In this document: piece by piece, positions 410 to 63,499 of the stretch
Layout: the number at the start of each line of letters is the position of its first letter
How positions within the stretch are numbered: the first letter of the stretch is position 1
Source of the DNA: Saprospiraceae bacterium
GTDB taxonomy: Bacteria > Bacteroidota > Bacteroidia > Chitinophagales > Saprospiraceae
DNA length: 64,000 nucleotides
Assembly: GCA_016787525.1 (NCBI GenBank)
Contig: JAEUUP010000092.1
Location: 102,062-166,061 of the forward strand
Direction of reading: 5' to 3'
Translations under genes and position numbers: made by a program
Notes under the pieces: generated by a model
Database searches by the model: none
What the model saw: the letters and a program-made list of their open reading frames with translations, nothing else
What the model was told of the DNA's origin: nothing

Positions 410-605
410 TTTCTAGTACAAAAGTGTAAATGTTAAAATAAAAGATTTTCAAGTGCAATAATAAATAATCTTTCTATAAAAAAACATTTATGTAAATAAT
501 ATTTCTATAAAAACATAAAAATATCATAGATGTGTCATAATATTTATAGGAATAATACAAAACCTTACAACTTAAGCTCCCCTCAGTATTTAGTGAAAAA
601 ATATT

Positions 606-647
606 GTGTCAAAAAGACACGAAAACATAAAGTGATTTTTACCTTTG
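606..647 (+). promoter_or_regulatory. Promoter region of the arabinofuranosidase gene: inverted repeat and -7 box
   Basis: TACCTTTG at 640-647 matches the Bacteroidota -7 element TAnnTTTG, 41 bases before the ATG. Upstream, GTGTC-AAAAA-GACAC (606-620) is a perfect 5-bp inverted repeat that could bind a regulator. No good -33 TTG is present at the usual spacing, so the promoter may need an activator. Confidence 0.45.
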
Positions 648-688
648 TTGCTATCAACTAAATTTTAAAAAATAAAAATAGTGAATCA

Positions 689-2230
689 ATGAAAAAAAGA
701 CTTATTCTATTTTGTGTTTTAGCCACTTTTCAAACTTTTATTGTAGCTCAGAATAAGGTCATCGTCAATGCTGATATGGGCAAAGACGTGATTAGCAAAC
801 ATATTTATGGACATTTTGCCGAACATTTGGGTCGTTGCATCTATGACGGCTTCTATGTTGGTGAAAAGAACACAACAATTCCAAACAAAGATGGTATTCG
901 GACAGACATCGTCCAAGCACTTAAAAAACTGAAAATTCCAAATTTACGTTGGCCGGGTGGTTGTTTTGCCGATACCTATCACTGGAAAGATGGTATTGGC
1001 CCGAAAGACAAACGCCCCTCAATGCTCAATGTCTGGTGGGGTGGGGTAACAGAAGACAATAGTTTCGGTACACACGATTTTTTAAATATGTGTGAGGAAA
1101 TCGGCACAGAACCCTATTTGGCAGCAAATGTCGGTAGCGGCACAGTGCAAGAGCTGATTGACTGGACACGCTATGTCAATTTTGAAAAAGGTAACCCAAT
1201 GGCTGACTTGCGCAAACAAAATGGTCGCGAGAAGGCATGGAACGTCAAATTATGGGGTGTTGGCAATGAAGTGTGGGGTTGCGGTGGCAATATGAAACCC
1301 GAATATTACGCCAATGTGTATCGCCAATATGCGACTTTTATGACAGGTTGGGACAATAACAATAAGTTGTTCCGCATCGCTTCGGGTGCAAGCGATGATG
1401 ATTACAATTGGACAGAAGTTTTGATGCGTGATATTCCCCACAATATGCTGGAAGGTGTCGCAGTGCACCACTATTCGGTCATTGATTGGCGCAAAAAAGG
1501 CTCAGATAGAGCCTTTTCGGAGCAAGAATATTTCACAACGATGCAAAAGGCATTGTTTATGGACGAAATCGTACGCCGACACTCAATTGTGATGGATAAA
1601 TATGACCCTAAAAAGAAAGTGGCCATGGTGGTTGATGAATGGGGCGGCTGGTATGAGGTCGAACAGGGAACGAATGGTGCGTTTTTGTATCAACAAAACA
1701 CCATGCGCGACGCGATGATAGCAGGCACAACATTGAATATTTTCCACAAATACTGCGACCGTGTGCGTATTGCAAACTTAGCACAAGCTATCAATGTCTT
1801 GCAAGCTGTGATTCTGACGAAAGGTGAAAAGATGATTTTGACACCAACGTATCATGTGATGGAGATGTACAACGTGCATCAAGATGCGACGAATCTACCC
1901 CTCAGTATCCAAACCGAAAACTATAAAGTAGGGAAGGACAGTTTGCCAGCCGTTTCAGTATCAGCTTCGAGAGATAAAGAGGGCGTGGTGCATATTTCGC
2001 TGGTCAATATCAATCCGAACAAAGCACAAGATGTATCAGTCAGTTTGCGTGGCATGTTGGCAAAAGCGGTGAGCGGTCGTATTTTGACCTCGGATAAAGT
2101 CCAAGACCATAACACATTTGAATCACCTGATAAAGTATCGCCCAAAGAATTTAAAGGAGCGAGCTTGAAAGGGGAGGAGTTGAAGGTCAGTTTGCCGCCT
2201 GTTTCAGTGGTGGTTTTGACCTTAAAATAG
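689..2230 (+). CDS. abfA: Secreted alpha-L-arabinofuranosidase, GH51
   Basis: This 513-residue protein has a signal peptide (about 1-20, ending at VAQ) followed by the GH51 (beta/alpha)8 barrel and a C-terminal beta domain. The acid/base is Glu194 in WGVGNEVWG; the nucleophile is Glu317 in VVDEWGGW. GH51 enzymes release terminal L-arabinose from arabinan and arabinoxylan, here probably in the periplasm or at the surface. The gene is monocistronic and ends in a hairpin made of two inverted TACTGAGGGG copies (2247-2276), convergent with an AraC-type regulator. One more copy lies inside the gene at 1898, read as Pro-Leu-Ser. The family call is strong; substrate preference is inferred from the family. 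Confidence 0.93.
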   Translation: MKKRLILFCVLATFQTFIVAQNKVIVNADMGKDVISKHIYGHFAEHLGRCIYDGFYVGEKNTTIPNKDGIRTDIVQALKKLKIPNLRWPGGCFADTYHWKDGIGPKDKRPSMLNVWWGGVTEDNSFGTHDFLNMCEEIGTEPYLAANVGSGTVQELIDWTRYVNFEKGNPMADLRKQNGREKAWNVKLWGVGNEVWGCGGNMKPEYYANVYRQYATFMTGWDNNNKLFRIASGASDDDYNWTEVLMRDIPHNMLEGVAVHHYSVIDWRKKGSDRAFSEQEYFTTMQKALFMDEIVRRHSIVMDKYDPKKKVAMVVDEWGGWYEVEQGTNGAFLYQQNTMRDAMIAGTTLNIFHKYCDRVRIANLAQAINVLQAVILTKGEKMILTPTYHVMEMYNVHQDATNLPLSIQTENYKVGKDSLPAVSVSASRDKEGVVHISLVNINPNKAQDVSVSLRGMLAKAVSGRILTSDKVQDHNTFESPDKVSPKEFKGASLKGEELKVSLPPVSVVVLTLK

Positions 2231-2245
2231 AGAAAACAAGGGGAA

Positions 2246-2277
2246 ATACTGAGGGGTATCAAAAGACCCCTCAGTAT
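2246..2277. terminator. Bidirectional hairpin made of two inverted TACTGAGGGG copies
   Basis: TACTGAGGGG at 2247-2256 and its reverse complement at 2267-2276 face each other across about ten bases, pairing over roughly 12 bp. The hairpin sits between the convergent genes ending at 2230 and 2281 and probably terminates both. Confidence 0.7.
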
Positions 2278-3177: not shown

Positions 3178-3532
3178 ATCAGAAAGTATAAGATAATGAA
3201 CAAAAGCGATAAAGGCTGGTTGCCGTAGTTTTACTTATTTTGTGAAATATTTGGCGAATATAATTGTGTTTTTTGATGATTTTTGAAAAAAAAGATAATT
3301 ATTTATTTGTGACAGCTGATTGAAAAAATGGCGAACCTCTACTTTTTGATATTTTCTCGCACTGTTTGAAAAAATACTGAGGGGGCTTGGAAAGGAATGG
3401 CTAACAGTTTTTATCAATCGGCATTTAGGTTAGTTTTTCATACATTCTATATTTTTGTCGTCACGACAATGTCTGGGCGACATTTTTTGATAAAGTCGAA
3501 AAATTGTAAAATCATAAAATCCAAAATTTAAA
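3178..3532 (+). promoter_or_regulatory. Divergent regulatory region before the rhamnose genes
   Basis: This 355-bp gap holds no convincing gene; a 60-codon frame on the minus strand has no recognisable content. TATTTTTG at 3450-3457 is a -7 box for the rightward gene. TTGTCGT-C-ACGACAA (3455-3469), a perfect 7-bp inverted repeat, overlaps the box and expected start site, and TGTC-tgggc-GACA (3471-3483) follows; both are operator candidates. One TACTGAGGGGG copy lies at 3375. Confidence 0.45.
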
Positions 3533-5650
3533 ATGGCATCACTCGGCACAATCCAACAATTCAAACACGTCAGTTACCTTTGGGATGAAGCAAAAGCCGC
3601 AGAATTAGCAGGCGATGAAGTCGCTTTGTTCATCTATCGCTCCAATATATTGGGTGCAGATTTGCGTTTGACGAACTATGGCGGTGGCAATACATCGGTC
3701 AAAATCACCGACAAAGACCCTTTGACCCAACAAGAAACCAATGTGATGTGGATCAAAGGCTCGGGTGGCGATATTGGTACTTTGACAAAATCGGGTTGTG
3801 CTGCATTGTACCTCGACCGTTTGCGCAGCCTCGAAAATGTGTATCGTGGCGTTGAGTTTGAAGATGAAATGGTCGAATTGTTTAATCATTGTATTTTCGA
3901 TTTAGCGTCAAAAGCACCTTCTATTGATACGCCTTTGCATGGTTTTTTACCCTTCAAACACATTGACCACTTGCATCCTGATGCAGCCATTGCGATTTGT
4001 GCGGCAAAAGATGGTAAAAAAATAACCGAAGAACTGTTCGGAGGTGAAGTCGGTTGGGTGGAGTGGAAACGCCCAGGGTTTGAGTTGGGCTTAGAATTGC
4101 GCCGATGTTTGGAGGCAAATGCGGCAAAAGGAATTGCCTTGAAAGGCATTATACTTGGTTCGCATGGCTTGTTCACGTGGGGCGATACGTCCTACGAAAG
4201 CTATATGAACACTTTGGAAGTAATTGAAAAATGTGCGCAGTACCTTGAAGATAATTATGGAAAAACGCGTCCCATCTTTGGTGGCACAAAAATAAATAGC
4301 CTCGAAACGGCAGAACGCCACAAAACGGCAGCAAAACTTGCACCTATACTGAGGGGGTATTGTTCGTCTGAGCGCAAGATGGTTGGTCATTTTTCGGATA
4401 CTGAAACGGTTCTGCAATTTGTCAATGCCAATGATTTGGCAAAATTAGCACCGATGGGAACGTCTTGTCCCGACCATTTTTTGCGGACAAAAATTGCGCC
4501 TTTGGTGCTTGACCCATCGAAACTGGATGAAAAAGGTTATCTGGATGGTGTTTTCGCAGCATATAGAGCAGGTTATCGTGAATATTACGAAGCGTGCAAA
4601 CACCCTAACTCACCTGCCATGCGCGACCCGAATCCAGTGGTGATTCTCGTGCCAAGCGTTGGTATGTTCACTTTTGCAAAGGACAAAACAATGGCACGTT
4701 TGGCCTCTGAATACTATATCAACGCCATAAACGTTATGCGTGGTGCAGAAGCTATTTCGGAGTACACCTCGCTGCCACATCAAGAAGCCTTCGACATCGA
4801 ATATTGGTTGCTCGAAGAAGCCAAATTGCAGCGTTTGCCCAAACCCAAACCCCTCAGTGGTCGTGTCGCTTTGGTGACAGGTAGCGCAGGGGGAATTGGC
4901 AAAGCGATTGCGAAAAAATTAGCTTCTGAAGGGGCTTGTGTTATTTTAAATGACATCAATCAAGAGCGTTTAGACGGTGCAAAAGCCGAATTTTTGACAA
5001 CTTTTGGCAAAGATGCAGTCGCTACCACGCTTTTAGATGTCACCAATTCGGATTCCATAGAGGCAGCATTGGCAGCAACATGTTTGGCATTTGGGGGTGT
5101 GGACATTGTGGTAAACAACGCTGGTATCAGTTTGTCGAAGCCGATTCAAGACCATACCATCGCCGACTGGGATAAGGTTTATGATATATTGGTAAAAGGT
5201 CAATTCTTAGTGAGTCGCGAAGCCGTTGCGGTGATGCGCAAACAAGGTTTTGGAGGTGATATTGTGAATATTGTTTCAAAAAATGCAGTGGTTGCTGGAC
5301 CTAATAACTTAGCGTATGGTTCTGCAAAATCGGCTCAGGCACATGGTACACGTTTGTTAGCAGCTGAATTGGGGGCAGACAAAATTCGTGTCAATATGGT
5401 CAATCCCGATGCTGTCATCGCTGACTCGAATATTTGGGCAGGTGGTTGGGCAGAAGGTCGTGCTAAGGCTTATGGCATCACAGTTGAAGAATTGCCAGCT
5501 TACTATGCCAAACGCACGCTTCTGAATGAAATCATTTTGCCAGAAGATATTGCTAATGCAACGTTCGCTTTGGTAGGTGGTTTGCTCAATAAATCAACTG
5601 GCAATGCTTTGAATGTAGATGGAGGTGTAGCAATGGGTTTTCTACGTTGA
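3533..5650 (+). CDS. Bifunctional rhamnulose-1-phosphate aldolase / short-chain dehydrogenase
   Basis: The 705-residue fusion has a class II aldolase domain (about 1-420; GSHGLFTWG and the His cluster near LHGFLPFKHIDHLHPD fit a zinc aldolase) joined to a short-chain dehydrogenase (about 440-705; TGSAGGIG near 448, Tyr596 and Lys600 of YxxxK). Known fusions of this type split L-rhamnulose-1-phosphate to dihydroxyacetone phosphate and L-lactaldehyde and then oxidise the aldehyde. The rhamnose isomerase lies 957 bp downstream on the same strand, with an opposite-strand gene between. No rhamnulokinase is visible in the window. Copies of the iterated decamer lie inside at 4347 (Leu-Arg-Gly frame) and 4850 (Pro-Leu-Ser frame, last base changed). 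Confidence 0.9.
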   Translation: MASLGTIQQFKHVSYLWDEAKAAELAGDEVALFIYRSNILGADLRLTNYGGGNTSVKITDKDPLTQQETNVMWIKGSGGDIGTLTKSGCAALYLDRLRSLENVYRGVEFEDEMVELFNHCIFDLASKAPSIDTPLHGFLPFKHIDHLHPDAAIAICAAKDGKKITEELFGGEVGWVEWKRPGFELGLELRRCLEANAAKGIALKGIILGSHGLFTWGDTSYESYMNTLEVIEKCAQYLEDNYGKTRPIFGGTKINSLETAERHKTAAKLAPILRGYCSSERKMVGHFSDTETVLQFVNANDLAKLAPMGTSCPDHFLRTKIAPLVLDPSKLDEKGYLDGVFAAYRAGYREYYEACKHPNSPAMRDPNPVVILVPSVGMFTFAKDKTMARLASEYYINAINVMRGAEAISEYTSLPHQEAFDIEYWLLEEAKLQRLPKPKPLSGRVALVTGSAGGIGKAIAKKLASEGACVILNDINQERLDGAKAEFLTTFGKDAVATTLLDVTNSDSIEAALAATCLAFGGVDIVVNNAGISLSKPIQDHTIADWDKVYDILVKGQFLVSREAVAVMRKQGFGGDIVNIVSKNAVVAGPNNLAYGSAKSAQAHGTRLLAAELGADKIRVNMVNPDAVIADSNIWAGGWAEGRAKAYGITVEELPAYYAKRTLLNEIILPEDIANATFALVGGLLNKSTGNALNVDGGVAMGFLR

Positions 5651-5663: not shown

Positions 5664-6491
5664 TTACTGAGGGGGTAGCTCGTCTGTTTCACTTTTTTTT
5701 TGTAATAGATGTAAATAGTTTTCGGGCGAAACAACTTGTGTATTTTGGACAGATTCAAAGCGTTTACGGGCTTCGCCTGCAGCATTGCCTCCTTTCAAAG
5801 CCGCCTCGTGATTTTCTGTAAACCCTTGAGCATCAAGACTTATGGCATTCAAACGAGTTGCCTCTTCACCCAAAGCGGTGAAAATCAATTCAAGCGGAGT
5901 CATGTGGTCGCGGAGGTTTTCTTTTTCCAAACTTTTCAACTGAGCGTGTTGCGAAGGCGTTAAACCAAAAGTGGCTTTAGCAATTTCGGCGGTCAAGATA
6001 GCGTATTCTTGTCCTTCTTTTACGCCTCGTTTTTGCCATTCGGTGGTCAGGCGTTTGCGGGCTTCGATACTTTGTTGGCGGCGTTCAATCCATTCGTCAG
6101 AGTAACCTTTGGCGCGGTAGTAGTCAATACTGCGTTGAGCAGCCAGTTCAGGGTCAGCCATTTCGTCGAGGCGTTCTTTGCCGATTTGCGCCAACCACTG
6201 TTTGAATGGCTCTGCTTTGGGCGATGGAACGGACATGATGAGCCGAAACACCCCCTCAGTATTGGCGGCATCACTTTTATATTTTTTGCCATCAGATGCT
6301 GTAATTTTCAGTTGACTACATATTGTAGCCAACTGCGGCTCTCGATTTTTTAAAACACTCCAATATTTACGAGGATTGACACTATCTGTCAGTGCCTCAA
6401 TAACATCAATAACAGAAAAATACCATTCTTCAGCGTGCCAAACCCGACGAATTTCTTTTTCTTGAAAAAGGATAATTTTGTTATTTTCCAT
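5664..6491 (-). CDS. BRO-N domain (prophage antirepressor-like) protein
   Basis: The 275-residue protein starts with a BRO-N domain (about 1-110: IRRVWHAEEWYFSVIDVIEAL, PRKYW, GVFRLIMSVPSPKAEPFKQWLAQIG), a DNA-binding fold known from phage antirepressors and viral BRO proteins. A charged helical region follows (about 115-275), as in chromosomal Bacteroidota members of unknown role. It lies antisense between two rhamnose genes, so it was probably inserted into a former operon. Its end is unusual: the last residues and stop (PPQ-TAA) are spelled by a reversed copy of the iterated decamer at 5665-5675, and another copy lies inside at 6251 as Thr-Glu-Gly. Confidence 0.85.
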   Translation of the reverse strand: MENNKIILFQEKEIRRVWHAEEWYFSVIDVIEALTDSVNPRKYWSVLKNREPQLATICSQLKITASDGKKYKSDAANTEGVFRLIMSVPSPKAEPFKQWLAQIGKERLDEMADPELAAQRSIDYYRAKGYSDEWIERRQQSIEARKRLTTEWQKRGVKEGQEYAILTAEIAKATFGLTPSQHAQLKSLEKENLRDHMTPLELIFTALGEEATRLNAISLDAQGFTENHEAALKGGNAAGEARKRFESVQNTQVVSPENYLHLLQKKSETDELPPQ

Positions 6492-6607: not shown

Positions 6608-7882
6608 ATGCAAATCGAAAAATACCAACTTGACGCTCACAATGAGCAAGGCTATGCCAAGCATAAAAAACGCCTCGATTTTCTGACCTCAGAAATCGAA
6701 GGCGAACGTGCCATTTTACAAAAACTGATTGACTTCCAAATTGCCATACCTTCATGGGCATTGGGGACAGGCGGCACGCGTTTTGGTCGCTTTTCGGGTG
6801 GTGGTGAGCCGCGCTCTTTGGAGGAAAAAATAGAAGATGTCGGTCTTTTGCACGCCTTAAATCGTTCAAGTGGGGCAATTTCGTTGCATATTCCATGGGA
6901 TATTCCTGAAAATCCAGCAGCCATTCGGGCTTTGGCAGCGCAACATGGCTTGGCATTTGATGCAGTCAATTCCAATACTTTTCAAGACCAAAAAGACCAA
7001 AAACTGAGCTACAAATTTGGCTCTTTGCAACACACCGACCCCTCAGTACGTCAGCAAGCGATTGAGCATAATATTGAGGTGATTCGGCATGGTATCGAAT
7101 TAGGCTCAAAATCCATAACTGTTTGGTTATCAGACGGTTCTTGCTTTCCAGGACAATTGAATTTCAGAAAAGCATTTCAAAATACTTTGGAAAGTTTGCA
7201 AGAAATCTATGCTGCTATGCCATCGGATTGGAAAATGTTCATCGAATACAAAGCTTTTGAACCCAATTTTTACTCCATGACCGTTGGCGATTGGGGACAA
7301 TCGTTGCTCTATGCGAGCAAATTGGGCGAACGGGCTTACACATTGGTTGATTTGGGGCATCATTTGCCCAATGCGAATATTGAGCAAATCGTGGCATTAT
7401 TGCTCATGGAGGGCAAATTGGCAGGTTTCCACTTCAATGATTCAAAATATGGCGACGACGATTTGACCGTTGGTAGCATCAATCCGTATCAATTGTTCTT
7501 GATTTTCAATGAGTTAATTGAGGGTATGGATGCGCGCGGCATGAATCATGCGACAGACTTAGGTTGGATGATTGACGCATCGCACAATGTGAAAGACCCT
7601 CTCGAAGACCTTTTACAATCAGTGGAAGCCATCATGCAAGCTTATGCAAAATCATTGTTAATTGACAGAAAGGCTTTGAATAAAGCACAAGCGGCAAACG
7701 ATGTCGTGCGGTGTCAAGAGATTTTGCAAACAGCGTATTTGACTGATGTGCGTGCATTGGTAGCTGAGGCGCGCTTGAAATCGGGCGGTGCATTAGACCC
7801 CCTCAGTATCTACCGCGATTTGAAGGTGCGCGAGCAGTTGATACAAGAACGCGGCGCGGTTACGGTGGCAACGGGACTGTAA
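6608..7882 (+). CDS. rhaI: L-rhamnose isomerase (xylose-isomerase-like TIM barrel)
   Basis: The 424-residue protein matches the sugar isomerases of the Pseudomonas stutzeri L-rhamnose isomerase type rather than E. coli RhaA. Likely metal ligands are Glu213 (FIEYKAFEP), Asp248 (TLVDLGHHLP) and His275 with nearby Asp278 (GFHFNDSKYGDDD). It converts L-rhamnose to L-rhamnulose in the cytoplasm, feeding the aldolase/dehydrogenase upstream. The start ATG follows an A-rich leader without a clear Shine-Dalgarno. A strong terminator follows at 7903. Two decamer copies lie inside (7039 Pro-Ser-Val frame, 7798 Pro-Leu-Ser frame). Confidence 0.9.
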   Translation: MQIEKYQLDAHNEQGYAKHKKRLDFLTSEIEGERAILQKLIDFQIAIPSWALGTGGTRFGRFSGGGEPRSLEEKIEDVGLLHALNRSSGAISLHIPWDIPENPAAIRALAAQHGLAFDAVNSNTFQDQKDQKLSYKFGSLQHTDPSVRQQAIEHNIEVIRHGIELGSKSITVWLSDGSCFPGQLNFRKAFQNTLESLQEIYAAMPSDWKMFIEYKAFEPNFYSMTVGDWGQSLLYASKLGERAYTLVDLGHHLPNANIEQIVALLLMEGKLAGFHFNDSKYGDDDLTVGSINPYQLFLIFNELIEGMDARGMNHATDLGWMIDASHNVKDPLEDLLQSVEAIMQAYAKSLLIDRKALNKAQAANDVVRCQEILQTAYLTDVRALVAEARLKSGGALDPLSIYRDLKVREQLIQERGAVTVATGL

Positions 7883-8455: not shown

Positions 8456-8498
8456 CTACTGAGGGGGGCTTTTCGAGGAAAGCACCCCCTCAGTATTT
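8456..8498 (+). terminator. Hairpin terminator built from an inverted pair of the decamer
   Basis: TACTGAGGGGGG (8457-8468) and the reversed CCCCCTCAGTATT (8485-8497) pair, and the stem continues through GCTTT/AAAGC around a six-base loop with one bulge. It starts six bases after the stop of the YdeI-like gene. Confidence 0.7.
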
Positions 8499-27333: not shown

Positions 27334-27343
27334 TTTTTTTAAA

Positions 27344-45489: not shown

Positions 45490-45582
45490 CTCCGAGGATT
45501 TTGATGTTACTAATATTAGTTTATTTCAGCACAGGCTTAGAGCAGTTTCTTATACAGGGCAATTTTATGAAATACTGAGGGG

Positions 45583-53372: not shown

Positions 53373-53499
53373 TATAGGCTTCAACACACAAACTATTAAA
53401 AGGCAATATTATCAAAACCCCAAAATAGACCCCTCAGTATAAGTTCGTGTAATTTGTGAAAATTCGTGTCTAATAATCAAAACTAAATTCAACAAGACA

Positions 53500-54861: not shown

Positions 54862-55626
54862 ATGCTTAGTTTAAAAAACAAAATAGCCATTGTCACAGGT
54901 GGCGGAAGTGGTATCGGCCGAGCCATTGCAACGCTTTTTGCCAAACAAGGCGCAGTCGTTCACATCATCGAACTCAATGAATCGGCAGCAAAAGACGCTG
55001 TGGAACAGATTCATACTGAGGGGGGTCATGCAATGACGCATAGTTGCAATGTGGCGATTCAAAATGAAGTCAAAACTGTGTTTGAACGCATCGGACAATT
55101 CGATATTTTGGTCAATAATGCAGGCATTGCTCACGTGGGCAATGTCGAAAACACCTCAGAAACCGATTTTGAACGCGTTTTCAACGTCAATGTCAAAGGC
55201 GTTTACAATTGTTTGCACTGTGCAGTGCCTCAATTCAAGCAGAATGGCGGCGGTGTTATTCTCAATATGGCTTCTGTGGCCGCATTGGTGGGTTTGAACG
55301 ACCGTTTGGCTTATTCTATGTCGAAAGGAGCCGTTATGGCGATGACAATGGCGACGGCCAAAGATTATGTTCAGAATAATATTCGCTGCAATTCTATTTC
55401 GCCTGCCCGCGTGCATACACCTTTTGTAGATGGCTTTTTAGCCAAAAATTATCCGGGAAAAGAAGCCGAAATGTTTGAAAATTTATCGAAAACACAACCG
55501 ATTGGGCGCATGGGCAAGCCTGAGGAGATAGCAAACTTAGCACTTTTTTTATGTTCCGAAGAAGCGGCCTTCATAACAGGCTGCGATTATCCGATTGACG
55601 GCGGATTTGTAAAACTGAATACATAA
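54862..55626 (+). CDS. Short-chain dehydrogenase, probable 2-keto-3-deoxy-L-fuconate dehydrogenase
   Basis: The 254-residue protein is a classical SDR: TGGGSGIGRAIA (about 11-22), NNAG (about 86), Ser and YSMSK (about 152-156), and PIDGGF at the end. By context it oxidises 2-keto-3-deoxy-L-fuconate to the 2,4-diketo acid used by the next gene product. Decamer copy at 55014 in the Thr-Glu-Gly frame. Confidence 0.83.
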   Translation: MLSLKNKIAIVTGGGSGIGRAIATLFAKQGAVVHIIELNESAAKDAVEQIHTEGGHAMTHSCNVAIQNEVKTVFERIGQFDILVNNAGIAHVGNVENTSETDFERVFNVNVKGVYNCLHCAVPQFKQNGGGVILNMASVAALVGLNDRLAYSMSKGAVMAMTMATAKDYVQNNIRCNSISPARVHTPFVDGFLAKNYPGKEAEMFENLSKTQPIGRMGKPEEIANLALFLCSEEAAFITGCDYPIDGGFVKLNT

Positions 55627-55678: not shown

Positions 55679-56536
55679 ATGAAACTTTTACGCTTTGGCG
55701 AATTTGAACAAGAAAAACCTGCCGTTGAATTAGCAAATGGCAAACGCATTGATGTTTCGGCTTTTGGCGAAGATTATAACGAAAACTTTTTTGGTACTGA
55801 GGGGGTCGCTCGTTTAGCAACTTGGTTGGAAACAAACGCCGAAAATTGTCCCGAAGTGCCTGCTGAAGCCCGTTTGGGGTCGTGTATTGCGCGACCATCT
55901 AAAATTGTGTGTATCGGATTAAACTATGCCAAACATGCTGCCGAATCGGGCATGGCTGTGCCAACAGAGCCAGTCGTTTTTTTCAAATCAACAACGGCTT
56001 TGTGTGGACCTAATGACAATGTTATCATCCCCAGAAACTCTGAAAAAACAGATTGGGAGGTCGAGTTAGCCGTTATCATAAGTAAAAAAGCCTCTTATGT
56101 TGAAGAAACAGATGCGATGGACTATGTAGCAGGTTATGCTTTGCACAATGATTATTCTGAGCGCGCTTTTCAGTTGGAACGCGGCGGACAATGGGTAAAA
56201 GGCAAAAGTAACGACACTTTCGCGCCCTTAGGCCCTTGGTTGGTGACTAAAGACGAAATTGAAGACCCCGAAAGCCTACGCCTTTGGTTGAGCATTGACG
56301 GAGAAATGTTGCAAGACTCTAATACCAATGATATGATTTTTGGTATCAAACACATCGTCAGTTATCTCAGCCAATTTATGACTTTGCTCCCAGGTGATGT
56401 CATTTCGACGGGTACACCTTTCGGTGTGGGTTTAGGTTTCAAGCCACCGCGTTATTTGAAAGGTGGCGAGGTGATTGAATTGGGTATTGATGGTTTGGGA
56501 ACACAAAGGCAGGTGGCTGTTCGGTATGGCGAATGA
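55679..56536 (+). CDS. Fumarylacetoacetate-hydrolase family, probable 2,4-diketo-3-deoxy-L-fuconate hydrolase
   Basis: The 285-residue protein has the FAH domain (about 70-280): CIGLNYAKHAAESG, EPVVFFKSTTALCGPNDNV, metal ligands in DWEVELAVII and HNDYSERAFQ, and STGTPFGVGLG. In the non-phosphorylative L-fucose pathway this family splits the diketo acid to pyruvate and L-lactate. Final step is inferred from order. Decamer copy at 55795. Confidence 0.85.
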   Translation: MKLLRFGEFEQEKPAVELANGKRIDVSAFGEDYNENFFGTEGVARLATWLETNAENCPEVPAEARLGSCIARPSKIVCIGLNYAKHAAESGMAVPTEPVVFFKSTTALCGPNDNVIIPRNSEKTDWEVELAVIISKKASYVEETDAMDYVAGYALHNDYSERAFQLERGGQWVKGKSNDTFAPLGPWLVTKDEIEDPESLRLWLSIDGEMLQDSNTNDMIFGIKHIVSYLSQFMTLLPGDVISTGTPFGVGLGFKPPRYLKGGEVIELGIDGLGTQRQVAVRYGE

Positions 56537-57212: not shown

Positions 57213-58043
57213 ATGACAATTGACGCACACCAACATTTTTGGCATTTCGATCCCGTCCGCGATGCGTGGATTACTGAGGGGTCTATGTCGGTCATTCGGC
57301 GAGATTTTTTGCCAAGCGATTTATCTCCCATTTTGCAGCAAAATGGTATAGATGGTTGCATCGCCGTTCAAGCCGATCAATCGGAAATGGAGACACATTT
57401 TCTATTGGAATTGGCAGCTCAATATGACTTCATAAAAGGCGTTGTCGGTTGGGTGGATTTAAAAGCGGATAACCTTTCGGAGCGTTTGGATTATTATACA
57501 TTATTTCCAAAACTCAAAGGTTTCCGACATATTTTGCAAGGTGAGAAGCCTGAGTTTATGCTCCAACCACGATTTACTGAGGGGGTGCGTTTATTGGGTC
57601 AAAAAGGTTTTACTTACGATATTTTAGTTTTTCCAAAACATTTAAAAGCTGTAAAAGTATTCTTAAAAAAGTGTGAGAATCAACCGTTTGTGATTGACCA
57701 TTTGGCAAAACCATATATCAAACGTGGCTTAATCAAAGAATGGGCAAAAGACATACGCAGCATTGCCAAACACGAAAATGTGTCGTGCAAAATATCGGGT
57801 ATGGTCACAGAAGCCGATTGGCAAAACTGGAAAGAGAGCGATTTTACACCTTATTTGGATACTATTCTTGAAGCCTTTGGAACGGATAGGGTGATGTATG
57901 GCTCGGATTGGCCTGTTTGTTTGGTAGCTGCGAGTTATGAAAAACAGTTTTCTATTGTCAAAAACTATATAAAAAAACTATCAGATACTGAGGGGGATAA
58001 AATTATGGGTGACAATGCCGCACGTTTTTACAAAACAGCATAA
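57213..58043 (+). CDS. Amidohydrolase-family L-fucono-1,5-lactonase
   Basis: The 276-residue protein begins MTIDAHQHFWHFDPVRDAWIT, the hallmark of COG3618 amidohydrolases that include L-fuconolactonase and L-rhamnono-lactonase. Metal-site His in AHQHFW, the central FVIDHLAKP and the late Asp in YGSDWPV are present. It hydrolyses L-fuconolactone made by the sugar dehydrogenase. Three decamer copies (57272, 57575, 57986), all in the Thr-Glu-Gly frame. Confidence 0.88.
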   Translation: MTIDAHQHFWHFDPVRDAWITEGSMSVIRRDFLPSDLSPILQQNGIDGCIAVQADQSEMETHFLLELAAQYDFIKGVVGWVDLKADNLSERLDYYTLFPKLKGFRHILQGEKPEFMLQPRFTEGVRLLGQKGFTYDILVFPKHLKAVKVFLKKCENQPFVIDHLAKPYIKRGLIKEWAKDIRSIAKHENVSCKISGMVTEADWQNWKESDFTPYLDTILEAFGTDRVMYGSDWPVCLVAASYEKQFSIVKNYIKKLSDTEGDKIMGDNAARFYKTA

Positions 58044-58297: not shown

Positions 58298-59629
58298 ATG
58301 ACTCTTTTAATCACCGTAATAGGAATTCTAATATTGGTATTACTCATTTCCTATTTCAAAATCCATACTTTTTTGGCATTTCTGATTGTATCAATCGGTA
58401 TAGGTCTTTGTTTGGGTATGCACCCCGAGGCGATGATGAAATCCATTCAGAATGGCATAGGTAGTACGTTGGGTTCGATAGTCAGTATCATTGCTTTGGG
58501 TGCTATGTTGGGAAAAATAGTCGCCATCAGCGGTGCAGCGCAACAAATAGCGCAAACCATGGTGAATTTGGTCGGCACAGAACACATTCGTTGGGCATTT
58601 ATGATAACGGGTTTTATCGTCGGTTTGCCTTTGTTTTATTCCGTTGGGTTTATGTTGATTGTGCCTTTAGCCATCACGGTTGCGCATCGGTACAATTTGT
58701 CGGCGATTTACATCGGCTTGCCGCTTTTGGCATCTTTATCGGTCACGCAAGGATATTTGCCGCCGCATCCTGCGCCCTTATTTTTAGTGAAACAATTGAA
58801 TGCGGACATGGGTTTGACCTTATTTTATGGCATCATCATATCCATTCCAGCGATTTTAATATCGGGTGCATTATATGGTTCGACGGTCAAAAACTATATG
58901 CAGCCGCCGAATTTGTCATTCGTCGCACCACAAATAGCGGCTGAAAACTTGCCTTCGGCCCCCCTCAGTATTTTCACTGTTTTATTGCCTATTGTGTTGA
59001 TTGGTGTTGGGTCAATCGTGCCGCCGTATTTGTCGGAGGGTTTATTGAAGCAGTTTTTTCTATTCATTGGCGATGCCACGGTGAGTTTATTGATAGCCGT
59101 GCTGTTCGCGTCTTACGCATTGGGTCTATTTTCTCCAAAGAATGCTTCTAAAAAAAGCCTAAAACAAAGCGAAATCACGCATTTTTTTGGCGATGCTATG
59201 AAAGATGTGGCTTCATTGTTCCTCATTTTTGGCGGTGCGGGTGCGTTGAAACAGATACTCACAGATGGCGGCGTTTCGCAAACCATCGCCGACATCATGA
59301 AAGATTCAAACATGAATCTCTACGTGTCAGGTTGGTTAGTGGCGGCGATTATTCGTGTTTGTGTCGGTTCTTCGACTGTTTCGGGTATCACGACGGCAGG
59401 TTTTATCGCTCCTTTGATGACCACCACCGCCATCAATCCCAATTTGATGGTGTTGAGCATCGGTGCAGGCAGTATGATGTTTTCACACGTCAACGACACG
59501 GGCTTTTGGTTATTCAGAGAATATTTTCAATTGTCTTTTAAAGATACGCTCAAAACATGGTCAGTCATGGACACCTTGGTTTCAATAACGGGGCTATTGG
59601 GTGTGTTAGTGATGCAGTATTTTATATGA
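58298..59629 (+). CDS. GntP-family sugar-acid permease
   Basis: The 443-residue protein has about twelve membrane helices and GntP-family motifs (ISGAAQQIAQTMVNLVG; PLFYSVGFMLIVPL; VTQGYLPPHPAPLFLV; AGSMMFSHVNDTGFWLFREYFQLS). GntP proteins carry gluconate or related sugar acids with protons; here L-fuconate or another pathway acid is likely. Decamer copy at 58959 read Pro-Leu-Ser. Confidence 0.88.
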   Translation: MTLLITVIGILILVLLISYFKIHTFLAFLIVSIGIGLCLGMHPEAMMKSIQNGIGSTLGSIVSIIALGAMLGKIVAISGAAQQIAQTMVNLVGTEHIRWAFMITGFIVGLPLFYSVGFMLIVPLAITVAHRYNLSAIYIGLPLLASLSVTQGYLPPHPAPLFLVKQLNADMGLTLFYGIIISIPAILISGALYGSTVKNYMQPPNLSFVAPQIAAENLPSAPLSIFTVLLPIVLIGVGSIVPPYLSEGLLKQFFLFIGDATVSLLIAVLFASYALGLFSPKNASKKSLKQSEITHFFGDAMKDVASLFLIFGGAGALKQILTDGGVSQTIADIMKDSNMNLYVSGWLVAAIIRVCVGSSTVSGITTAGFIAPLMTTTAINPNLMVLSIGAGSMMFSHVNDTGFWLFREYFQLSFKDTLKTWSVMDTLVSITGLLGVLVMQYFI

Positions 59630-59681: not shown

Positions 59682-60692
59682 ATGAAATCAATTTTATTAG
59701 AAAAACCCTATCATTTTACCTATAAAGACATTGAATCGGACGAATCACTCGCACCCGACCAAGTGCTTTTGAAAATCCACAACATTGGCATTTGTGGTAC
59801 AGATTATCATGCCTTTCGAGGCAATCAACCCTTTTTCAGTTATCCACGACGTTTGGGACATGAGTTGGGGGTAGAGATTGTGGCTTTGGGCAGTGGTGTT
59901 GATGCGGAAAAGTACCCCCTCAGTAGTCGGGGGTCTGTTGAGCCATATTTGCATTGTGGCGTGTGCCAAGCTTGTCGGCGAGGTAAGACGAATTGTTGTG
60001 AAAGTTTGCAAGTTTTGGGTGTGCATACTGAGGGGGGGATGACAGAATTTCTGAAAGTGCCTGCGGCAAAAGTTCATCTATCAAAAAAACTGACTTTTGA
60101 GCAATTGGCTTTGGTCGAAACATTGGCTATTGGTTGTCATGCTGTTGATAGAGCGAAAATTGAAGCCCATGACAGTGTTTTAATCATTGGTGCAGGCCCG
60201 ATTGGCTTGTCGGTTGTGGAATTTGCGCGGATGAAAACGGCTTCTGTTTTTGTTTTAGATAGAGACGAAAATCGCTTAACTTTTTGCCGAAATAACTACG
60301 GTGTACAGACTGTTTTAGCTGCGGAGGGTTTCGATTTACTGTCTTTTATGCCCGAAAAACCGACCATCATCTTTGATGCCACAGGCAACGAACAATCTAT
60401 GAACGACACCGTGAAAACCATTGCCCACAGTGGAAAAATCGTTTTTGTCGGCTTGCATCAAGGTTTTATTCAGATAAAAGATTCTGAGTTTCACAGAAAA
60501 GAAGTGACGCTTATGGCTTCTCGGAACGCCTTACCACAAGATTTTGAATTTATCATTCAAAAAATGGAGGAAGGTGTGATTGATACCTCCAAATGGATAA
60601 CGCATCGGGCAGATTTCGACGATATGTTGCAACATTTTGAGACTTGGTTGAAGCCTGAAAGTCGGGTGATAAAGGCGGTTGTACAGTTGTAA
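59682..60692 (+). CDS. Zinc-dependent alcohol dehydrogenase (MDR family)
   Basis: The 336-residue protein has the catalytic zinc motif (GICGTDYH; GHELGVE), the structural zinc Cys cluster (CGVCQACRRGKTNCC) and a Rossmann segment VLIIGAGPIGLSVVEFA. It may oxidise L-fucose, L-galactose or a pathway intermediate such as lactaldehyde. Cluster context favours fucose or an analogue, but the SDR at 61299 is an alternative first enzyme. Decamer copies at 59915 and 60026. Confidence 0.85.
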   Translation: MKSILLEKPYHFTYKDIESDESLAPDQVLLKIHNIGICGTDYHAFRGNQPFFSYPRRLGHELGVEIVALGSGVDAEKYPLSSRGSVEPYLHCGVCQACRRGKTNCCESLQVLGVHTEGGMTEFLKVPAAKVHLSKKLTFEQLALVETLAIGCHAVDRAKIEAHDSVLIIGAGPIGLSVVEFARMKTASVFVLDRDENRLTFCRNNYGVQTVLAAEGFDLLSFMPEKPTIIFDATGNEQSMNDTVKTIAHSGKIVFVGLHQGFIQIKDSEFHRKEVTLMASRNALPQDFEFIIQKMEEGVIDTSKWITHRADFDDMLQHFETWLKPESRVIKAVVQL

Positions 60693-60788: not shown

Positions 60789-61217
60789 ATGAGAGAAAAT
60801 CCGTTTATAATCATTTGTTTAACAACCGTTCTTTATGGTTGTTTGCCGCCACAATTACCGCTTTCAAAGGAAGAAAAGGCACTTGAAAAACAACTAAGCA
60901 AAAAGTTTGGATGTGAGGTTGTATTTAAACATGACTATCCGACTATCAAAGAAGGAGGTAGCGATGGTACATTTGGTATTTTCATGTGCGACAATTTGTG
61001 TAATTCTGAATATTCTGAATTGTTAAAAATATGCGGAGATATTTCCAAACAACTTACGCCTATTTTGAGCCATAAAAATTCTTATAAATCAATCAGTATT
61101 GGGTTTTCAAAAGCAATTAAGATTGATGAAAGAATGGAAAGGGAAGATTGTGTGAAAATATTTAAATTTTTAGTTTCAAATCCTGATTCACTTCTTTTAT
61201 TTAAAAAGATATACTGA
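60789..61217 (+). CDS. Hypothetical lipoprotein
   Basis: Start chosen at ATG 60789 (MRENPFIIICLTTVLYGC; 142 residues) because it gives a lipobox (VLYGC); the open frame extends 11 codons upstream. I do not recognise the mature part (LSKEEKALEKQLSKKFGCEVVFKHDY; two more Cys). Its stop codon TGA lies inside a decamer copy (TAC-TGA-GGG at 61212), the only case in the window using this frame. Function unknown. Confidence 0.6.
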   Translation: MRENPFIIICLTTVLYGCLPPQLPLSKEEKALEKQLSKKFGCEVVFKHDYPTIKEGGSDGTFGIFMCDNLCNSEYSELLKICGDISKQLTPILSHKNSYKSISIGFSKAIKIDERMEREDCVKIFKFLVSNPDSLLLFKKIY

Positions 61218-61238
61218 GGGGGATAAATATGATAAAAA

Positions 61239-61298: not shown

Positions 61299-62093
61299 AT
61301 GAATCTCAACCTAAAAAACAAAGTCATCATCGTCACAGGTGGTGCAAAAGGTATCGGCGAAGGCATCGCCGAAGTCCTCGGTACTGAGGGGGCCATCGTT
61401 GCGATTGTCGGACGCAATGAAGCGGACAACCTATTGACTGTCAATAAAATAAAGGCAGCCAATGGGCAAGCATTTTCAGTCATTGCGGAATTGACTCAGC
61501 CCGACGATTGTAAAAATGCGGTGGCACAAGTCGTTGCACAATGCGGGCGCATTGATGGTTTAGTCAATAATGCAGGAGTCAACGATGGTGTCGGACTTGA
61601 AAATGGCAACTACGAAGGGTTTGTCGCTTCGTTGCACCGCAATTTGATACATTATTATCTGATGGCGCATCATGCTTTGCCATTTTTGAAAGAATCGAAA
61701 GGCGCAATCGTCAATATCGGTTCAAAAACCGCTGAAACTGGGCAAGGTGGCACATCTGCCTATGCTGCGAGCAACGGCGGACGCAACGCCTTGACCCGCG
61801 AATGGGCGGTCGAGTTGTTGAAATATGGCATTCGGGTCAATGCCTTGATTGTGGCAGAATGTTACACGCCTTTGTATGACCGTTGGATCAAAACATTGCC
61901 CAATCCAGAAGAAACTTTGGCAAAAATCACCTCGAAAATTCCTTTGGAAAACCGCATGACAACGGCGACGGAAATTGCCAATATGGTGGCTTTTCTGTTG
62001 TCCGATGTGTCAAGTCATACGACTGGGCAATTAATACACGTGGATGGTGGCTATGTGCATTTGGATAGGTCGTTAATCACAGATTTAGACTGA
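61299..62093 (+). CDS. Short-chain dehydrogenase, probable L-fucose dehydrogenase
   Basis: The 264-residue protein is an SDR with TGGAKGIGEGIA (about 12-23), NNAG (about 91) and a C-terminal HVDGGY. The catalytic YxxxK is YAASN: Tyr is present but the Lys position is Asn (about 156). Sequences like AASNGGRNALTREWAVEL occur in SDRs from fucose loci, so the change may be normal for this subgroup. By position it probably oxidises L-fucose to L-fuconolactone; it lies 152 bp before the fucose transporter. Decamer copy at 61382 read Thr-Glu-Gly. Confidence 0.75.
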   Translation: MNLNLKNKVIIVTGGAKGIGEGIAEVLGTEGAIVAIVGRNEADNLLTVNKIKAANGQAFSVIAELTQPDDCKNAVAQVVAQCGRIDGLVNNAGVNDGVGLENGNYEGFVASLHRNLIHYYLMAHHALPFLKESKGAIVNIGSKTAETGQGGTSAYAASNGGRNALTREWAVELLKYGIRVNALIVAECYTPLYDRWIKTLPNPEETLAKITSKIPLENRMTTATEIANMVAFLLSDVSSHTTGQLIHVDGGYVHLDRSLITDLD

Positions 62094-62208
62094 TTGATTT
62101 GATTGGTATGATTCCTTTATAATCAATTTAATCAAATAAATCCGTCTAAATCAGTAATTCGTATCAAAAAGTACAAAATAAATCGCAACCAATTTAAGCA
62201 GCCCAAAC

Positions 62209-62216
62209 TAATTTTG
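62209..62216 (+). promoter_or_regulatory. -7 box of the fucose transporter gene
   Basis: TAATTTTG matches TAnnTTTG, 30 bases before the ATG at 62246. Confidence 0.45.
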
Positions 62217-62245
62217 TGCTGCATCATTTTTAAACAATAAGAATC

Positions 62246-63499
62246 ATGCAAAAAGAAAAACCAAGCTATTTAGTTCCTTTTATTCTCATCACGAGTTTGT
62301 TTTTTATGTGGGGTATTGCCAATAATTTGAATGGCATTTTGATTCCACATTTGCGTAAGGCTTTAGAATTGAGCAATATGCAATCCACTTTTGTGGACAC
62401 AGCGGTTTATATGGCGTATTTCCTCATGGCGATTCCCGCAGGCATCATTTTGAGGAAATTTGGCTATAAAAAGGGTATTATCATGGGTTTATTGATATTT
62501 GCGGCGGGCGCATTGCTGTTTTTGCCTGCGGCAGATAATCGAGCTTATTCTGTTTTTCTTTTGGGTTTATTCATTCTCGGTTGCGGTTTGACACTTTTAG
62601 AAACGGCTGCCAATCCTTATGCCACACGACTCGGCGATACTGAGGGGGCGACAGCGCGACTCAATTTGGCGCAATCGTTCAATGGTTTAGCGGTTTTCGT
62701 AGGCCCTGTTATTGGGACATTATTTATCCTTTCGGGAACAGAATACAGCAAAGAACAAATGTTGGCAATGCCCGAAGCGGATAAAATTGCGTACCTGACA
62801 GGCGAAGCAGCATCGGTAAAAATGCCTTATTTGATATTAGGTGGTTTCCTTATTTTATTGGCGATTATTTTCTATTTCATTGACTTACCTGAGTTGGAAG
62901 AGAAAAACGAAACCACTCAAAAAGGTGGCATTTTCGATACTTTGAAATACAGTCATGTACGTTGGGCGGTTATTGCACAGTTGTTTTATGTAGGCGCACA
63001 AGTGTGTGTCACGAGTTTTTTCATCCGTATGGCGATGACAGGCGGCGGTGTTGATGAAAAAACAGCGGGCTACTATTTGAGTCTATACGGCTTGTTGTTT
63101 ATGATTGGTCGTTTTGCTGGTACGGCGATTATGCGCTTTGTTGCGCCCGCTAAATTGCTGAGTTTGTACTCTGTTGCGTGCATTTTATTGGGTGCTGCGG
63201 CCATTTTTACTGAGGGGTCGCTTGTGGTTTGGGCTTTAGGCGGTTTAGGCTTTTTTATGTCTATCATGTTTCCGACGATATTTTCTTTGGGCATCGTTGG
63301 CTTGAAAGAGGAGACAAAACCTGCCTCATCCTTGATTGTGATGGCGATTATTGGCGGCGCGATTTTTCCTGTTATCATGGGTAATATCATTGACCGTGCA
63401 GGTGATAATATTCAAGCGGGTTATATTGTGCCGTTGGTTTGTTACATTTTTGTGCTTTACTTTGGTTTGGTGGGGCATAAAGTGAAGACGGCAAATTAG
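62246..63499 (+). CDS. fucP: L-fucose:proton symporter
   Basis: The 417-residue protein is an MFS permease of the FucP branch: SLFFMWGIANNLNGILIPHLRKALEL, YMAYFLMAIPAGIILRKFGYKKGI, LETAANPYATRLGDTEGATARLNLAQSFNGLAVFVGP. It imports L-fucose for the oxidative pathway encoded upstream. Decamer copies at 62638 (in the conserved GDTEGATAR loop) and 63208. Confidence 0.93.
   Translation: MQKEKPSYLVPFILITSLFFMWGIANNLNGILIPHLRKALELSNMQSTFVDTAVYMAYFLMAIPAGIILRKFGYKKGIIMGLLIFAAGALLFLPAADNRAYSVFLLGLFILGCGLTLLETAANPYATRLGDTEGATARLNLAQSFNGLAVFVGPVIGTLFILSGTEYSKEQMLAMPEADKIAYLTGEAASVKMPYLILGGFLILLAIIFYFIDLPELEEKNETTQKGGIFDTLKYSHVRWAVIAQLFYVGAQVCVTSFFIRMAMTGGGVDEKTAGYYLSLYGLLFMIGRFAGTAIMRFVAPAKLLSLYSVACILLGAAAIFTEGSLVVWALGGLGFFMSIMFPTIFSLGIVGLKEETKPASSLIVMAIIGGAIFPVIMGNIIDRAGDNIQAGYIVPLVCYIFVLYFGLVGHKVKTAN

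What the first reader, a model, noticed from the sequence alone, without database searches (positions are those of the whole stretch)
579..63217. Highly iterated decamer TACTGAGGGG, a candidate DNA-uptake-sequence-like element in Bacteroidota
About 71 near-exact copies of 5'-TACTGAGGGG(G0-3) occur in 64 kb (39 plus, 32 minus), about one per 0.9 kb; a given decamer should occur about 0.1 times here on both strands. Known systems with this density are the uptake sequences of Neisseria (10-mer, about one per kb) and Haemophilus (9-mer); they share the balanced orientation, presence in coding DNA and paired use as terminators. I know of no uptake sequence described in Bacteroidota. Alternatives are a recombination hotspot, a nucleoid or segregation site, or a HIP1-like repeat of unknown role.
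Basis: partly seen in the sequence, partly recalled or inferred. Interest (0 to 1): 0.95.

Follow-up and report, generated by a model that had tools for sequence, protein, structure and literature searches.

The report
Bacteroidota DNA-uptake signal without pili
A ten-letter DNA word occurs 6,920 times, about once per kilobase, in the genome of one unnamed Bacteroidota bacterium and nearly as densely in three phage fragments; it likely acts as a label by which the cell recognises and takes up DNA of its own kind, and because no type IV pilus genes were found in the genome it would need a different kind of receptor from those of the two known systems.

Summary
Confirmed and extended. The window has 67 exact TACTGAGGGG (0.04 expected); the genome (7.27 Mb, Saprospiraceae) has 3,457 + 3,463, against 1 + 2 for the reversed word. 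Among 587 other Bacteroidota genomes none has more than 14. In 1.92 Mb, copies are strand-balanced, 73% in genes, more evenly spaced than chance, sharply conserved (1,899 exact, 250 one-mismatch), and flanked by A/T maxima about every 10.5 bp over some 60 bp. Inverted pairs (29; direct pairs 1) lie mostly at gene ends. Coding copies mostly align ungapped to homologs, so arose by substitution. Three tailed-phage contigs carry the motif at nearly host density, as Pasteurellaceae phages carry USS. In two genes, motif-coded tripeptides are kept in close database homologs and nearly absent below about 69-70% identity, so a clade probably shares the motif. ComEC, ComF, a four-HHH protein, DprA and DUF1343 are present; type IV pilin and PilB/PilT-type ATPase were not found. 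Best reading: an uptake sequence, the first supported in Bacteroidota that my searches found, probably read by a non-pilin receptor. Uptake and receptor are untested; relatives without the motif have the same competence genes.

The parts
579..588 (-). copy of TACTGAGGGG
1898..1907 (-). copy of TACTGAGGGG
2247..2276 (.). inverted pair of TACTGAGGGG (2247-2256 +, 2267-2276 -), 16 bp after an ORF end at 2230; terminator-like
3375..3384 (+). copy of TACTGAGGGG
4347..4356 (+). copy of TACTGAGGGG
5665..5674 (+). copy of TACTGAGGGG
6252..6261 (-). copy of TACTGAGGGG
7039..7048 (-). copy of TACTGAGGGG
7799..7808 (-). copy of TACTGAGGGG
8457..8495 (.). inverted pair of TACTGAGGGG (8457-8466 +, 8486-8495 -), 5 bp after an ORF end at 8451; terminator-like
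9292..9301 (-). copy of TACTGAGGGG
9595..9604 (+). copy of TACTGAGGGG
10340..10349 (-). copy of TACTGAGGGG
12104..12113 (-). copy of TACTGAGGGG
12967..12976 (+). copy of TACTGAGGGG
13382..13391 (+). copy of TACTGAGGGG
14154..14163 (-). copy of TACTGAGGGG
15461..15470 (-). copy of TACTGAGGGG
15699..15708 (+). copy of TACTGAGGGG
17869..17878 (+). copy of TACTGAGGGG
18014..18023 (-). copy of TACTGAGGGG
18499..18508 (-). copy of TACTGAGGGG
20157..20166 (+). copy of TACTGAGGGG
20511..20520 (-). copy of TACTGAGGGG
20763..20772 (+). copy of TACTGAGGGG
23398..23407 (+). copy of TACTGAGGGG
23669..23678 (-). copy of TACTGAGGGG
24412..24421 (-). copy of TACTGAGGGG
25569..25578 (+). copy in sialate O-acetylesterase gene (25378-27333), codes TEG; kept in 23 of the 24 best homologs (69-80% identity), 1 of the next 35, 0 of the last 60
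26357..26366 (+). copy in the same gene, codes LRG; kept in 20 of 24, 3 of 35, 0 of 60
27258..27267 (+). copy in the same gene, codes TEG; kept in 11 of 24, 0 of 35, 3 of 60
30689..30698 (-). copy of TACTGAGGGG
33172..33181 (-). copy in phenylacetate-CoA ligase gene; aligns ungapped to PDB homologs
35158..35167 (-). copy of TACTGAGGGG
35698..35707 (+). copy of TACTGAGGGG
37078..37087 (-). copy of TACTGAGGGG
38686..38695 (+). copy of TACTGAGGGG
38873..38882 (+). copy of TACTGAGGGG
40078..40087 (-). copy of TACTGAGGGG
40942..40951 (+). copy of TACTGAGGGG
41474..41483 (+). copy of TACTGAGGGG
41971..41980 (+). copy of TACTGAGGGG
43413..43422 (+). copy of TACTGAGGGG
45573..45582 (+). copy of TACTGAGGGG
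46118..46127 (-). copy of TACTGAGGGG
46503..46512 (+). copy of TACTGAGGGG
46739..46748 (+). copy of TACTGAGGGG
48220..48229 (+). copy of TACTGAGGGG
49712..49721 (-). copy of TACTGAGGGG
51193..51202 (-). copy of TACTGAGGGG
51903..51912 (-). copy in altronate/galactarate dehydratase-like gene; motif residues ungapped against the PDB homolog (weak domain match, gap a few residues upstream)
52802..52811 (-). copy in the same gene; ungapped against PDB homolog (PSV against PSP)
53430..53439 (-). copy of TACTGAGGGG
55014..55023 (+). copy of TACTGAGGGG
55795..55804 (+). copy of TACTGAGGGG
57272..57281 (+). copy in L-fuconolactonase-like gene (57213-58043), codes TEG; kept in 20 of 21 homologs at 78-99% identity, 2 of 28 at 66-70%, 0 of 12 at 60-66%
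57575..57584 (+). copy in the same gene, codes TEG; kept in 19 of 21, 0 of 28, 0 of 12
57986..57995 (+). copy in the same gene, codes TEG; kept in 18 of 21, 2 of 28, 0 of 12
58961..58970 (-). copy of TACTGAGGGG
59916..59925 (-). copy of TACTGAGGGG
60026..60035 (+). copy of TACTGAGGGG
61212..61221 (+). copy of TACTGAGGGG
61382..61391 (+). copy of TACTGAGGGG
62638..62647 (+). copy in fucose-permease-like gene, codes TEG; ungapped against PDB FucP
63208..63217 (+). copy in the same gene, codes TEG; ungapped against PDB FucP

Best explanation
TACTGAGGGG, present 6,920 times in this Saprospiraceae genome, is likely the core of a DNA uptake sequence: a short self-label that a surface receptor would recognise on free DNA before it is taken into the cell. 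The recognised site is probably larger than ten bases: W-TACTGAGGGG-K with A/T-rich segments about every 10.5 bp upstream (-33, -22, -12, -1) and, more weakly, downstream (+15, +26), which suggests a bent or wrapped stretch of about 60 bp (profile shown; binding inferred). Labelled DNA would enter by an outer-membrane route that is not a type IV pilus, pass a ComEA-like helix-hairpin-helix protein and ComEC, and recombine with the help of DprA and RecA (genes found except RecA, which was not searched; route inferred from Riemerella). Because labelled fragments would enter more often, a chance substitution that completes a label would be spread by recombination, so that labels build up to about one per kilobase in genes, between genes and in resident phages (inferred, as in Neisseriaceae and Pasteurellaceae). 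The receptor is unknown.
For: Abundance with strand balance, 3,457/3,463 against control 1/2. Density 0.95/kb, beside 1,892 DUS in 2.18 Mb of N. meningitidis (passages of PMC2397512) and 1,465 USS cores in H. influenzae (passages of PMC7811141). Under-dispersed spacing, CV 0.753 against a uniform control mean of 0.992, minimum 0.930 of 300. Density 0.87/kb in predicted genes, 1.55/kb between them. Inverted pairs under 60 bp: 29 against 1 direct pair; 28 of 29 intergenic, and 1 of the 26 of these with both neighbouring genes known lies between divergent genes. Phased A/T flanks: amplitude 0.053 at 10.5 bp, the highest of five periods tried (9.5-11.5), against control mean 0.0032, maximum 0.009 of 100; seen in coding and in intergenic copies. 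Origin mostly by substitution: 5 of 5 sites ungapped against PDB homologs, 47 of 56 against homologs in relatives. Three tailed-phage contigs at 0.84-0.95 per kb with the same flank pattern; HP1 carries 17 USS in 32,355 bp, and USS density singled out all 12 Pasteurellaceae-lysogenising phages among 2,045 (passages of PMC6776037). Motif-coded tripeptides at six sites in two genes are kept in most of the closest homologs and nearly lost below about 69-70% identity. ComEC, ComF-like and four-HHH proteins, DprA, DUF1343/NamZ.
Confidence: 0.75

Rival explanations
1. A HIP1-like word that is created and maintained by a DNA methylation or repair process acting on all DNA in the cell, with no role in uptake.
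For: HIP1 of cyanobacteria is also very abundant and is lost or replaced in some lineages; a methylation-dependent mismatch repair model has been proposed for it (abstract of PMC4390886). Such a process would also mark resident phage DNA.
Against: HIP words are palindromes tied to methyltransferases; this word is asymmetric and has a 10.5-bp phased flank pattern over about 60 bp, even spacing and inverted pairs at gene ends, which a base-repair process does not predict. Methyltransferases were not surveyed.
Confidence: 0.12
2. A chromosome-organising site: a sequence-specific nucleoid protein wraps about 60 bp at one site per kilobase.
For: Even spacing, phased flanks and balanced orientation would all suit such a protein.
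Against: It offers no means for some 7,000 sites to spread by substitution through genes, each under very weak selection (inference), nor a clear reason why three phage contigs should come near host density. No other genome of the family sample has the word in number.
Confidence: 0.07
3. A Chi-like or other self-mark inside the cell that spares marked DNA from nucleases; phages acquired it to survive.
For: Phage contigs carry it at nearly host density.
Against: Motif strand does not follow GC skew (replication arms were not mapped). Known Chi words are 5-8 bp, lie mostly on the leading strand and have no long phased flanks (recalled). Inverted pairs at gene ends have no role in that model.
Confidence: 0.05
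4. A mobile mini-element inserted many times.
For: Dispersed near-identical copies; some coding sites are gapped (9 of 56).
Against: 1,380 of 1,899 copies lie inside predicted genes, where a 10-bp insertion would shift the frame; most alignments are ungapped; no longer repeat surrounds the word.
Confidence: 0.01

Closest known systems
DNA uptake sequence (DUS) of Neisseriaceae, read by minor pilin ComP
   Same: 10-mer core; about one per kilobase; inverted pairs in terminators; lineage-specific dialects (passages of PMC3630211, PMC2397512)
Uptake signal sequence (USS) of Pasteurellaceae
   Same: short core with A/T tracts predicted to be rigid and slightly bent; relatively even distribution (passages of PMC7811141); accumulates in temperate phages (passages of PMC6776037; HP1)
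   Different: different sequence; A/T segments mainly upstream over three helical turns; no pilus found here, whereas the predicted USS receptor is a minor pilin (abstract of PMC12616744)
Natural transformation of Riemerella (Bacteroidota)
   Same: needs ComEC, DprA, ComF, RecA, a helix-hairpin-helix protein, DUF1343 and an outer-membrane protein with a carboxypeptidase-regulatory-like domain (passages of PMC8459023); R. columbina prefers its own DNA (passages of PMC7965970)
   Different: no convincing uptake word reported: the top 10-mers in the passages seen are A/T-rich strings at 196-759 copies
HIP1 of cyanobacteria
   Same: very abundant, lineage-variable word
   Different: palindromic octamer linked to methyltransferases (abstract of PMC4390886)

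Membership tests
DNA uptake sequence as a functional kind (DUS/USS-like) | strong genome-wide over-representation, both strands alike | tested here: met
   3,457 + 3,463 against control 1 + 2
DNA uptake sequence as a functional kind (DUS/USS-like) | present in genes and between genes, with inverted pairs at gene ends | tested here: met
   1,380 coding, 507 intergenic, 12 boundary of 1,899; 29 inverted pairs, 28 intergenic; pairs rarer than in the known systems
DNA uptake sequence as a functional kind (DUS/USS-like) | relatively even spacing | tested here: met
   CV 0.753, uniform control 0.992
DNA uptake sequence as a functional kind (DUS/USS-like) | accumulates in resident temperate phages | tested here: met
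   20 in 21,062, 17 in 20,354 and 16 in 19,154 bp; 3 of 19 viral contigs that held an inverted pair; host of the phages not shown independently
DNA uptake sequence as a functional kind (DUS/USS-like) | competence machinery (ComEC, ComEA-like, DprA) | tested here: met
   shared with relatives that lack the motif
DNA uptake sequence as a functional kind (DUS/USS-like) | preferential uptake of DNA with the motif | not testable with these tools
   needs an experiment
Neisseriaceae DUS (ComP system) | one of the DUS dialects | tested here: not met
   by eye against the canonical DUS as recalled: only CTGA is shared; the 5'-CTG-3' core of all dialects (passages of PMC3630211) does occur inside this word, the rest differs
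Neisseriaceae DUS (ComP system) | type IV pilus with minor pilin receptor | tested here: not met
   PF00437: 4 matches in G000, none over cut-off, 13 of 14 control genomes over cut-off; PF07963: 0 matches in G000, 8 of 14 controls positive; draft 98% complete
Pasteurellaceae USS | AAGTGCGGT-type core | tested here: not met
   by eye: sequence differs; the USS core is recalled and was counted in HP1
Pasteurellaceae USS | flanking A/T tracts at helical spacing | tested here: met
   about 10.5-bp A/T periodicity in the flanks, here mainly upstream; the helical spacing of the USS tracts is recalled
HIP1-like word | palindrome | tested here: not met
   TACTGAGGGG is not its own reverse complement (sequence)
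HIP1-like word | cognate methyltransferase | not tested
   no methyltransferase survey was made
Chi or KOPS | strand bias along the replicated arms | tested here: inconclusive
   no relation to GC skew (Spearman 0.13, p 0.23, 86 windows of 20 kb), but skew is weak and origin and terminus were not mapped in this draft
Dispersed mobile mini-element | copies are insertions | tested here: not met
   5 of 5 and 47 of 56 ungapped

The most novel reading that the evidence does not exclude
A third, independent origin of uptake sequences, in a clade of Saprospiraceae whose phages carry the label too, read as a wrapped DNA stretch of about 60 bp by an outer-membrane receptor that is not a pilin.
Probability: 0.6. 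Interest if true: 0.95.

Novelty: new variant of a known kind. Interest (0 to 1): 0.9.

Why it matters
As far as I know (recalled, and no other case in my searches), uptake sequences are established only in Neisseriaceae and Pasteurellaceae, both of which use type IV pili. A third case in another phylum without pili would show that the trait can evolve independently of the pilus, give a specific DNA bait for finding the unknown outer-membrane DNA receptor of Bacteroidota, and offer a sequence tag that marks the phages, and possibly other mobile elements, of this clade in metagenomes.

Tried and rejected
Dialects in relatives: 20 stretches of 20 other genomes were fetched; 17 had 5 kb or more and were scanned for over-represented 8- and 10-mers. 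Eight top words from 7 of these stretches were looked at in place: most are tandem repeats or repeats within one gene; CGAGCAGG in G001 (17 in 20 kb, 1.45 expected, 64% GC) and CCGGTCAG in G023 (12) are more scattered and were not resolved. G046 over 290 kb: best dispersed 10-mer TTGATTATCA, 36 copies, near-palindromic, not comparable. At 7-20 kb each, words well below 1 per kb would be missed.

Same word elsewhere: 14 stretches in genome contigs with an inverted pair, all 14 with only that pair in the part held; the tool says records of the window's own genome or near it may be left out. Viral contigs: 16 of 19 had only the pair in the part held.

Phage-host link: L154 (first 20,000 bases) and L155 have only short DNA matches in G000, and the MuF-like protein of L109 only a weak one (E 9.5e-4).

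Receptor: the beta-barrel gene beside the comEC cluster (L114:12773-15319) looked promising but belongs to a widespread paralog family (40 of 40 genomes searched, G000 included, have matches; 59-60% identity in G014 and G023), so it is no specific lead. It is not next to the comEC cluster of G046 in the stretch seen.

Peptide trace in the HHH protein: uninformative, because signature tripeptides are also frequent in homologs below 56% identity (3.46 per 1,000 residues), probably through conserved HHH peptides.

Motif-free islands: the longest unmasked motif-free stretch in 1.92 Mb is 5.9 kb, mostly in a giant repetitive gene; two small mobile-like contigs (C15, C27) have 1 copy each in 3.1 and 3.7 kb, too few to test depletion.

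Literature. One of three strings (the decamer, its complement, or its last nine bases) is in 179 papers, of which 15 were listed; those titles look unrelated.

Full report
What was checked. The window holds 67 exact copies of TACTGAGGGG (37 plus, 30 minus), where shuffles give 0.04. The genome it belongs to (G000; 7,267,541 bases in 169 contigs, 98.08% complete, 1.77% contamination) holds 3,457 forward and 3,463 reverse, against 1 and 2 for the word read backwards. The family is Saprospiraceae, judged by several named protein hits and by the length of one family member's contig, which I recall as the Haliscomenobacter hydrossis chromosome.

How far it reaches. In a sample of 199 family genomes (G000 included) and 395 phylum genomes (G000 included, 5 others shared with the first sample), all 587 others have 0 to 14 copies. 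The one other genome of the same genus in the sample, G046, has 3, but it is not close: its ComEC, HHH and 3D-domain proteins are only 38-41% identical. A scan of a collection of 84,980 species genomes for an inverted pair gave 14 stretches, each with only that pair in the part held; the tool may leave out records near the window.

Anatomy. Counts were made in 765,624 bp and then in 1,923,524 bp of G000. In 1.92 Mb there are 1,899 copies, 959 and 940 by strand, 0.987 per kb; 682 sense and 698 antisense in predicted genes, 507 intergenic, 12 at boundaries; 0.87 per kb in genes and 1.55 per kb between them (with a home-made dicodon gene caller). One-mismatch copies number 250, most at positions 1, 8, 10 and 7 of the word; position 2 has a single one. 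The base after the word is G in 1,100, T in 704, A in 73 and C in 22. The base before it is A in 59% and T in 25% of 744 copies. Gaps between copies are more even than chance: CV 0.753 against 0.992 (minimum 0.930) for 300 uniform placements; 6.8% of gaps are under 200 bp against 18.2% for an exponential. Pairs under 60 bp are 15 plus-minus, 14 minus-plus, 1 plus-plus and 0 minus-minus. Of the 29 inverted pairs 28 are intergenic; of the 26 of these with both neighbouring genes known, 1 lies between divergent genes, although divergent spacers make up 86,692 of 305,579 intergenic bases. These are terminator positions. Motif strand does not follow GC skew, but the replication arms were not mapped.

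A larger site. Around 744 copies the A/T content rises at -33, -22, -12 and -1 and at +15 and +26, and falls between. On the 738 copies not at gene boundaries the Fourier amplitude at 10.5 bp is 0.053 upstream and 0.022 downstream, the highest of five periods tried (9.5 to 11.5, all raised), against a mean of 0.003 and a maximum of 0.009 in 100 frame-matched random samples; the pattern is seen in 556 coding and in 182 intergenic copies. This is what a protein that bends or wraps DNA over about 60 bp would select. The binding is inferred.

How copies arise. In five coding sites with solved homologs the motif residues align without gap (FucP twice, PaaK once, galactarate/altronate dehydratase twice, one of these in a weak domain match). 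In a wider test, 47 of 56 coding sites are ungapped against the best homolog in the relatives' stretches; the 9 gapped (16%) exceed the control rate of 7%, so the sites sit in loose parts of proteins. 557 sites in 300 proteins were offered to that test; only the 56 with a usable alignment were counted.

Phages. Pair scans of viral contigs found 19 contigs, of which 16 hold only the pair in the part held and 3 hold more. The three are 3300037309_000133, with Mu-type portal and MuF proteins and 20 copies in 21,062 bp; 3300046336_000213, with integrase and tape measure and 17 in 20,354 bp; and 3300048691_000223, with integrase, tape measure and a portal match and 16 in 19,154 bp. Their 51 copies with context show the same flank phases. 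The portal of the third is nearest to phages of Flavobacterium, Cellulophaga, Nonlabens and Polaribacter, with two Microcystis phages among the 30 records; all are below 60% identity. G000 itself has no long match to the second and third and a weak one to a protein of the first, so their host is inferred. As a yardstick, Haemophilus phage HP1 has 17 exact USS cores in 32,355 bp, and Szafranski et al. report that USS density singled out all 12 Pasteurellaceae-lysogenising phages among 2,045 (passages of PMC6776037). Phage carriage is thus a known trait of uptake sequences. It does not by itself exclude a process that marks all DNA in the cell, and in Neisseria islands often show drastic drops in DUS density (passages of PMC7371117).

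Trace in relatives. In the sialate O-acetylesterase (25378-27333), the residues coded by its three copies are TEG, LRG and TEG. Of the 119 homologs listed, the best 24 (69-80% identity) keep them in 23, 20 and 11; the next 35 (65-69%) in 1, 3 and 0; the last 60 (63-68%) in 0, 0 and 3, with DASGK the usual form at the first site. In the L-fuconolactonase-like protein (57213-58043), TEG at its three copies is kept in 20, 19 and 18 of 21 homologs at 78-99%, in 26, 22 and 27 of 38 at 74-78%, in 16, 0 and 15 of 20 at 70-74%, in 2, 0 and 2 of 28 at 66-70%, and in 0 of 12 at 60-66%, while the neighbouring residues vary. Average tripeptide retention in these five bins is 0.54, 0.47, 0.40, 0.36 and 0.30. 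The sharp edge suggests that a clade of relatives, seen here only as database proteins, shares the word at the same sites. Their DNA was not seen. A third protein tried this way, the HHH protein, was uninformative.

Machinery. C7 of G000 carries a comF-like gene, comEC, a protein with four HHH_3 stretches, a 3D/MltA-like protein and an outer-membrane beta-barrel with a carboxypeptidase-regulatory-like domain in one stretch. DprA is on C142; DUF1343/NamZ is present twice. In Riemerella anatipestifer a transposon screen found ComEC, DprA, ComF, RecA, an HHH protein, DUF1343 and a carboxypeptidase-regulatory-like outer-membrane protein essential (passages of PMC8459023). The PilB/PilT/GspE ATPase family gives four sub-threshold matches in G000 and none over the cut-off; the prepilin N-terminal motif gives none, while 8 of 14 control genomes are positive. 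So the pilus route of Neisseria and Haemophilus was not found. Family members without the word have the same competence genes (ComEC 18 of 18, DprA 12 of 12, DUF1343 10 of 12), so the specificity determinant is still to be found.

Verdict. The word works like an uptake sequence on most genomic tests that I could run, but it is a member of neither known family. What is shown: abundance, balance, spacing, flank periodicity, mostly substitution origin, phage carriage, peptide trace, competence genes, and no pilus genes found. What is inferred: binding, uptake, spread by transformation, sharing by a clade, and a non-pilin receptor.

Noticed in passing
L109:1110-2429 (IMG/VR 3300037309_000133): The MuF-like head protein of the motif-rich phage ends in a domain matching NAD:arginine ADP-ribosyltransferase (PF01129, E 4.5e-14).
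   Followed up: no
G046, 290 kb fetched (L036, L118-L133): Near-palindromic TTGATTATCA occurs 36 times (2.8 expected) in the same-genus genome; possibly terminators or a regulator site.
   Followed up: no
L036:6445-6625 (G046): A 26-bp tandem array (TCGGCGAGGTTGCAAC...) with further CGGCGAGGT copies near positions 220 and 490 of the same stretch.
   Followed up: no
window 33088-37088: Likely phenylacetate degradation genes (PaaK-like ligase, PaaA/PaaC protein).
   Followed up: no
window 27258-30688: The longest motif-free stretch of the window (3.4 kb), over several ORFs whose function was not looked up.
   Followed up: partly
window 63558-63845: Low-complexity ORF made of repeats like FSNAFSDF on the minus strand.
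   Followed up: no
G000 C161, C24, C25: Bases read as N (4,371, 3,016 and 2,691); they were counted as sequence in the spacing figures and left out of the base total.
   Followed up: partly
G000 C15 and C27 (3.1 and 3.7 kb): Small contigs with a conjugation-like ATPase and a ParA-like protein (read by eye) have only 1 motif copy each, as recently acquired DNA might.
   Followed up: partly
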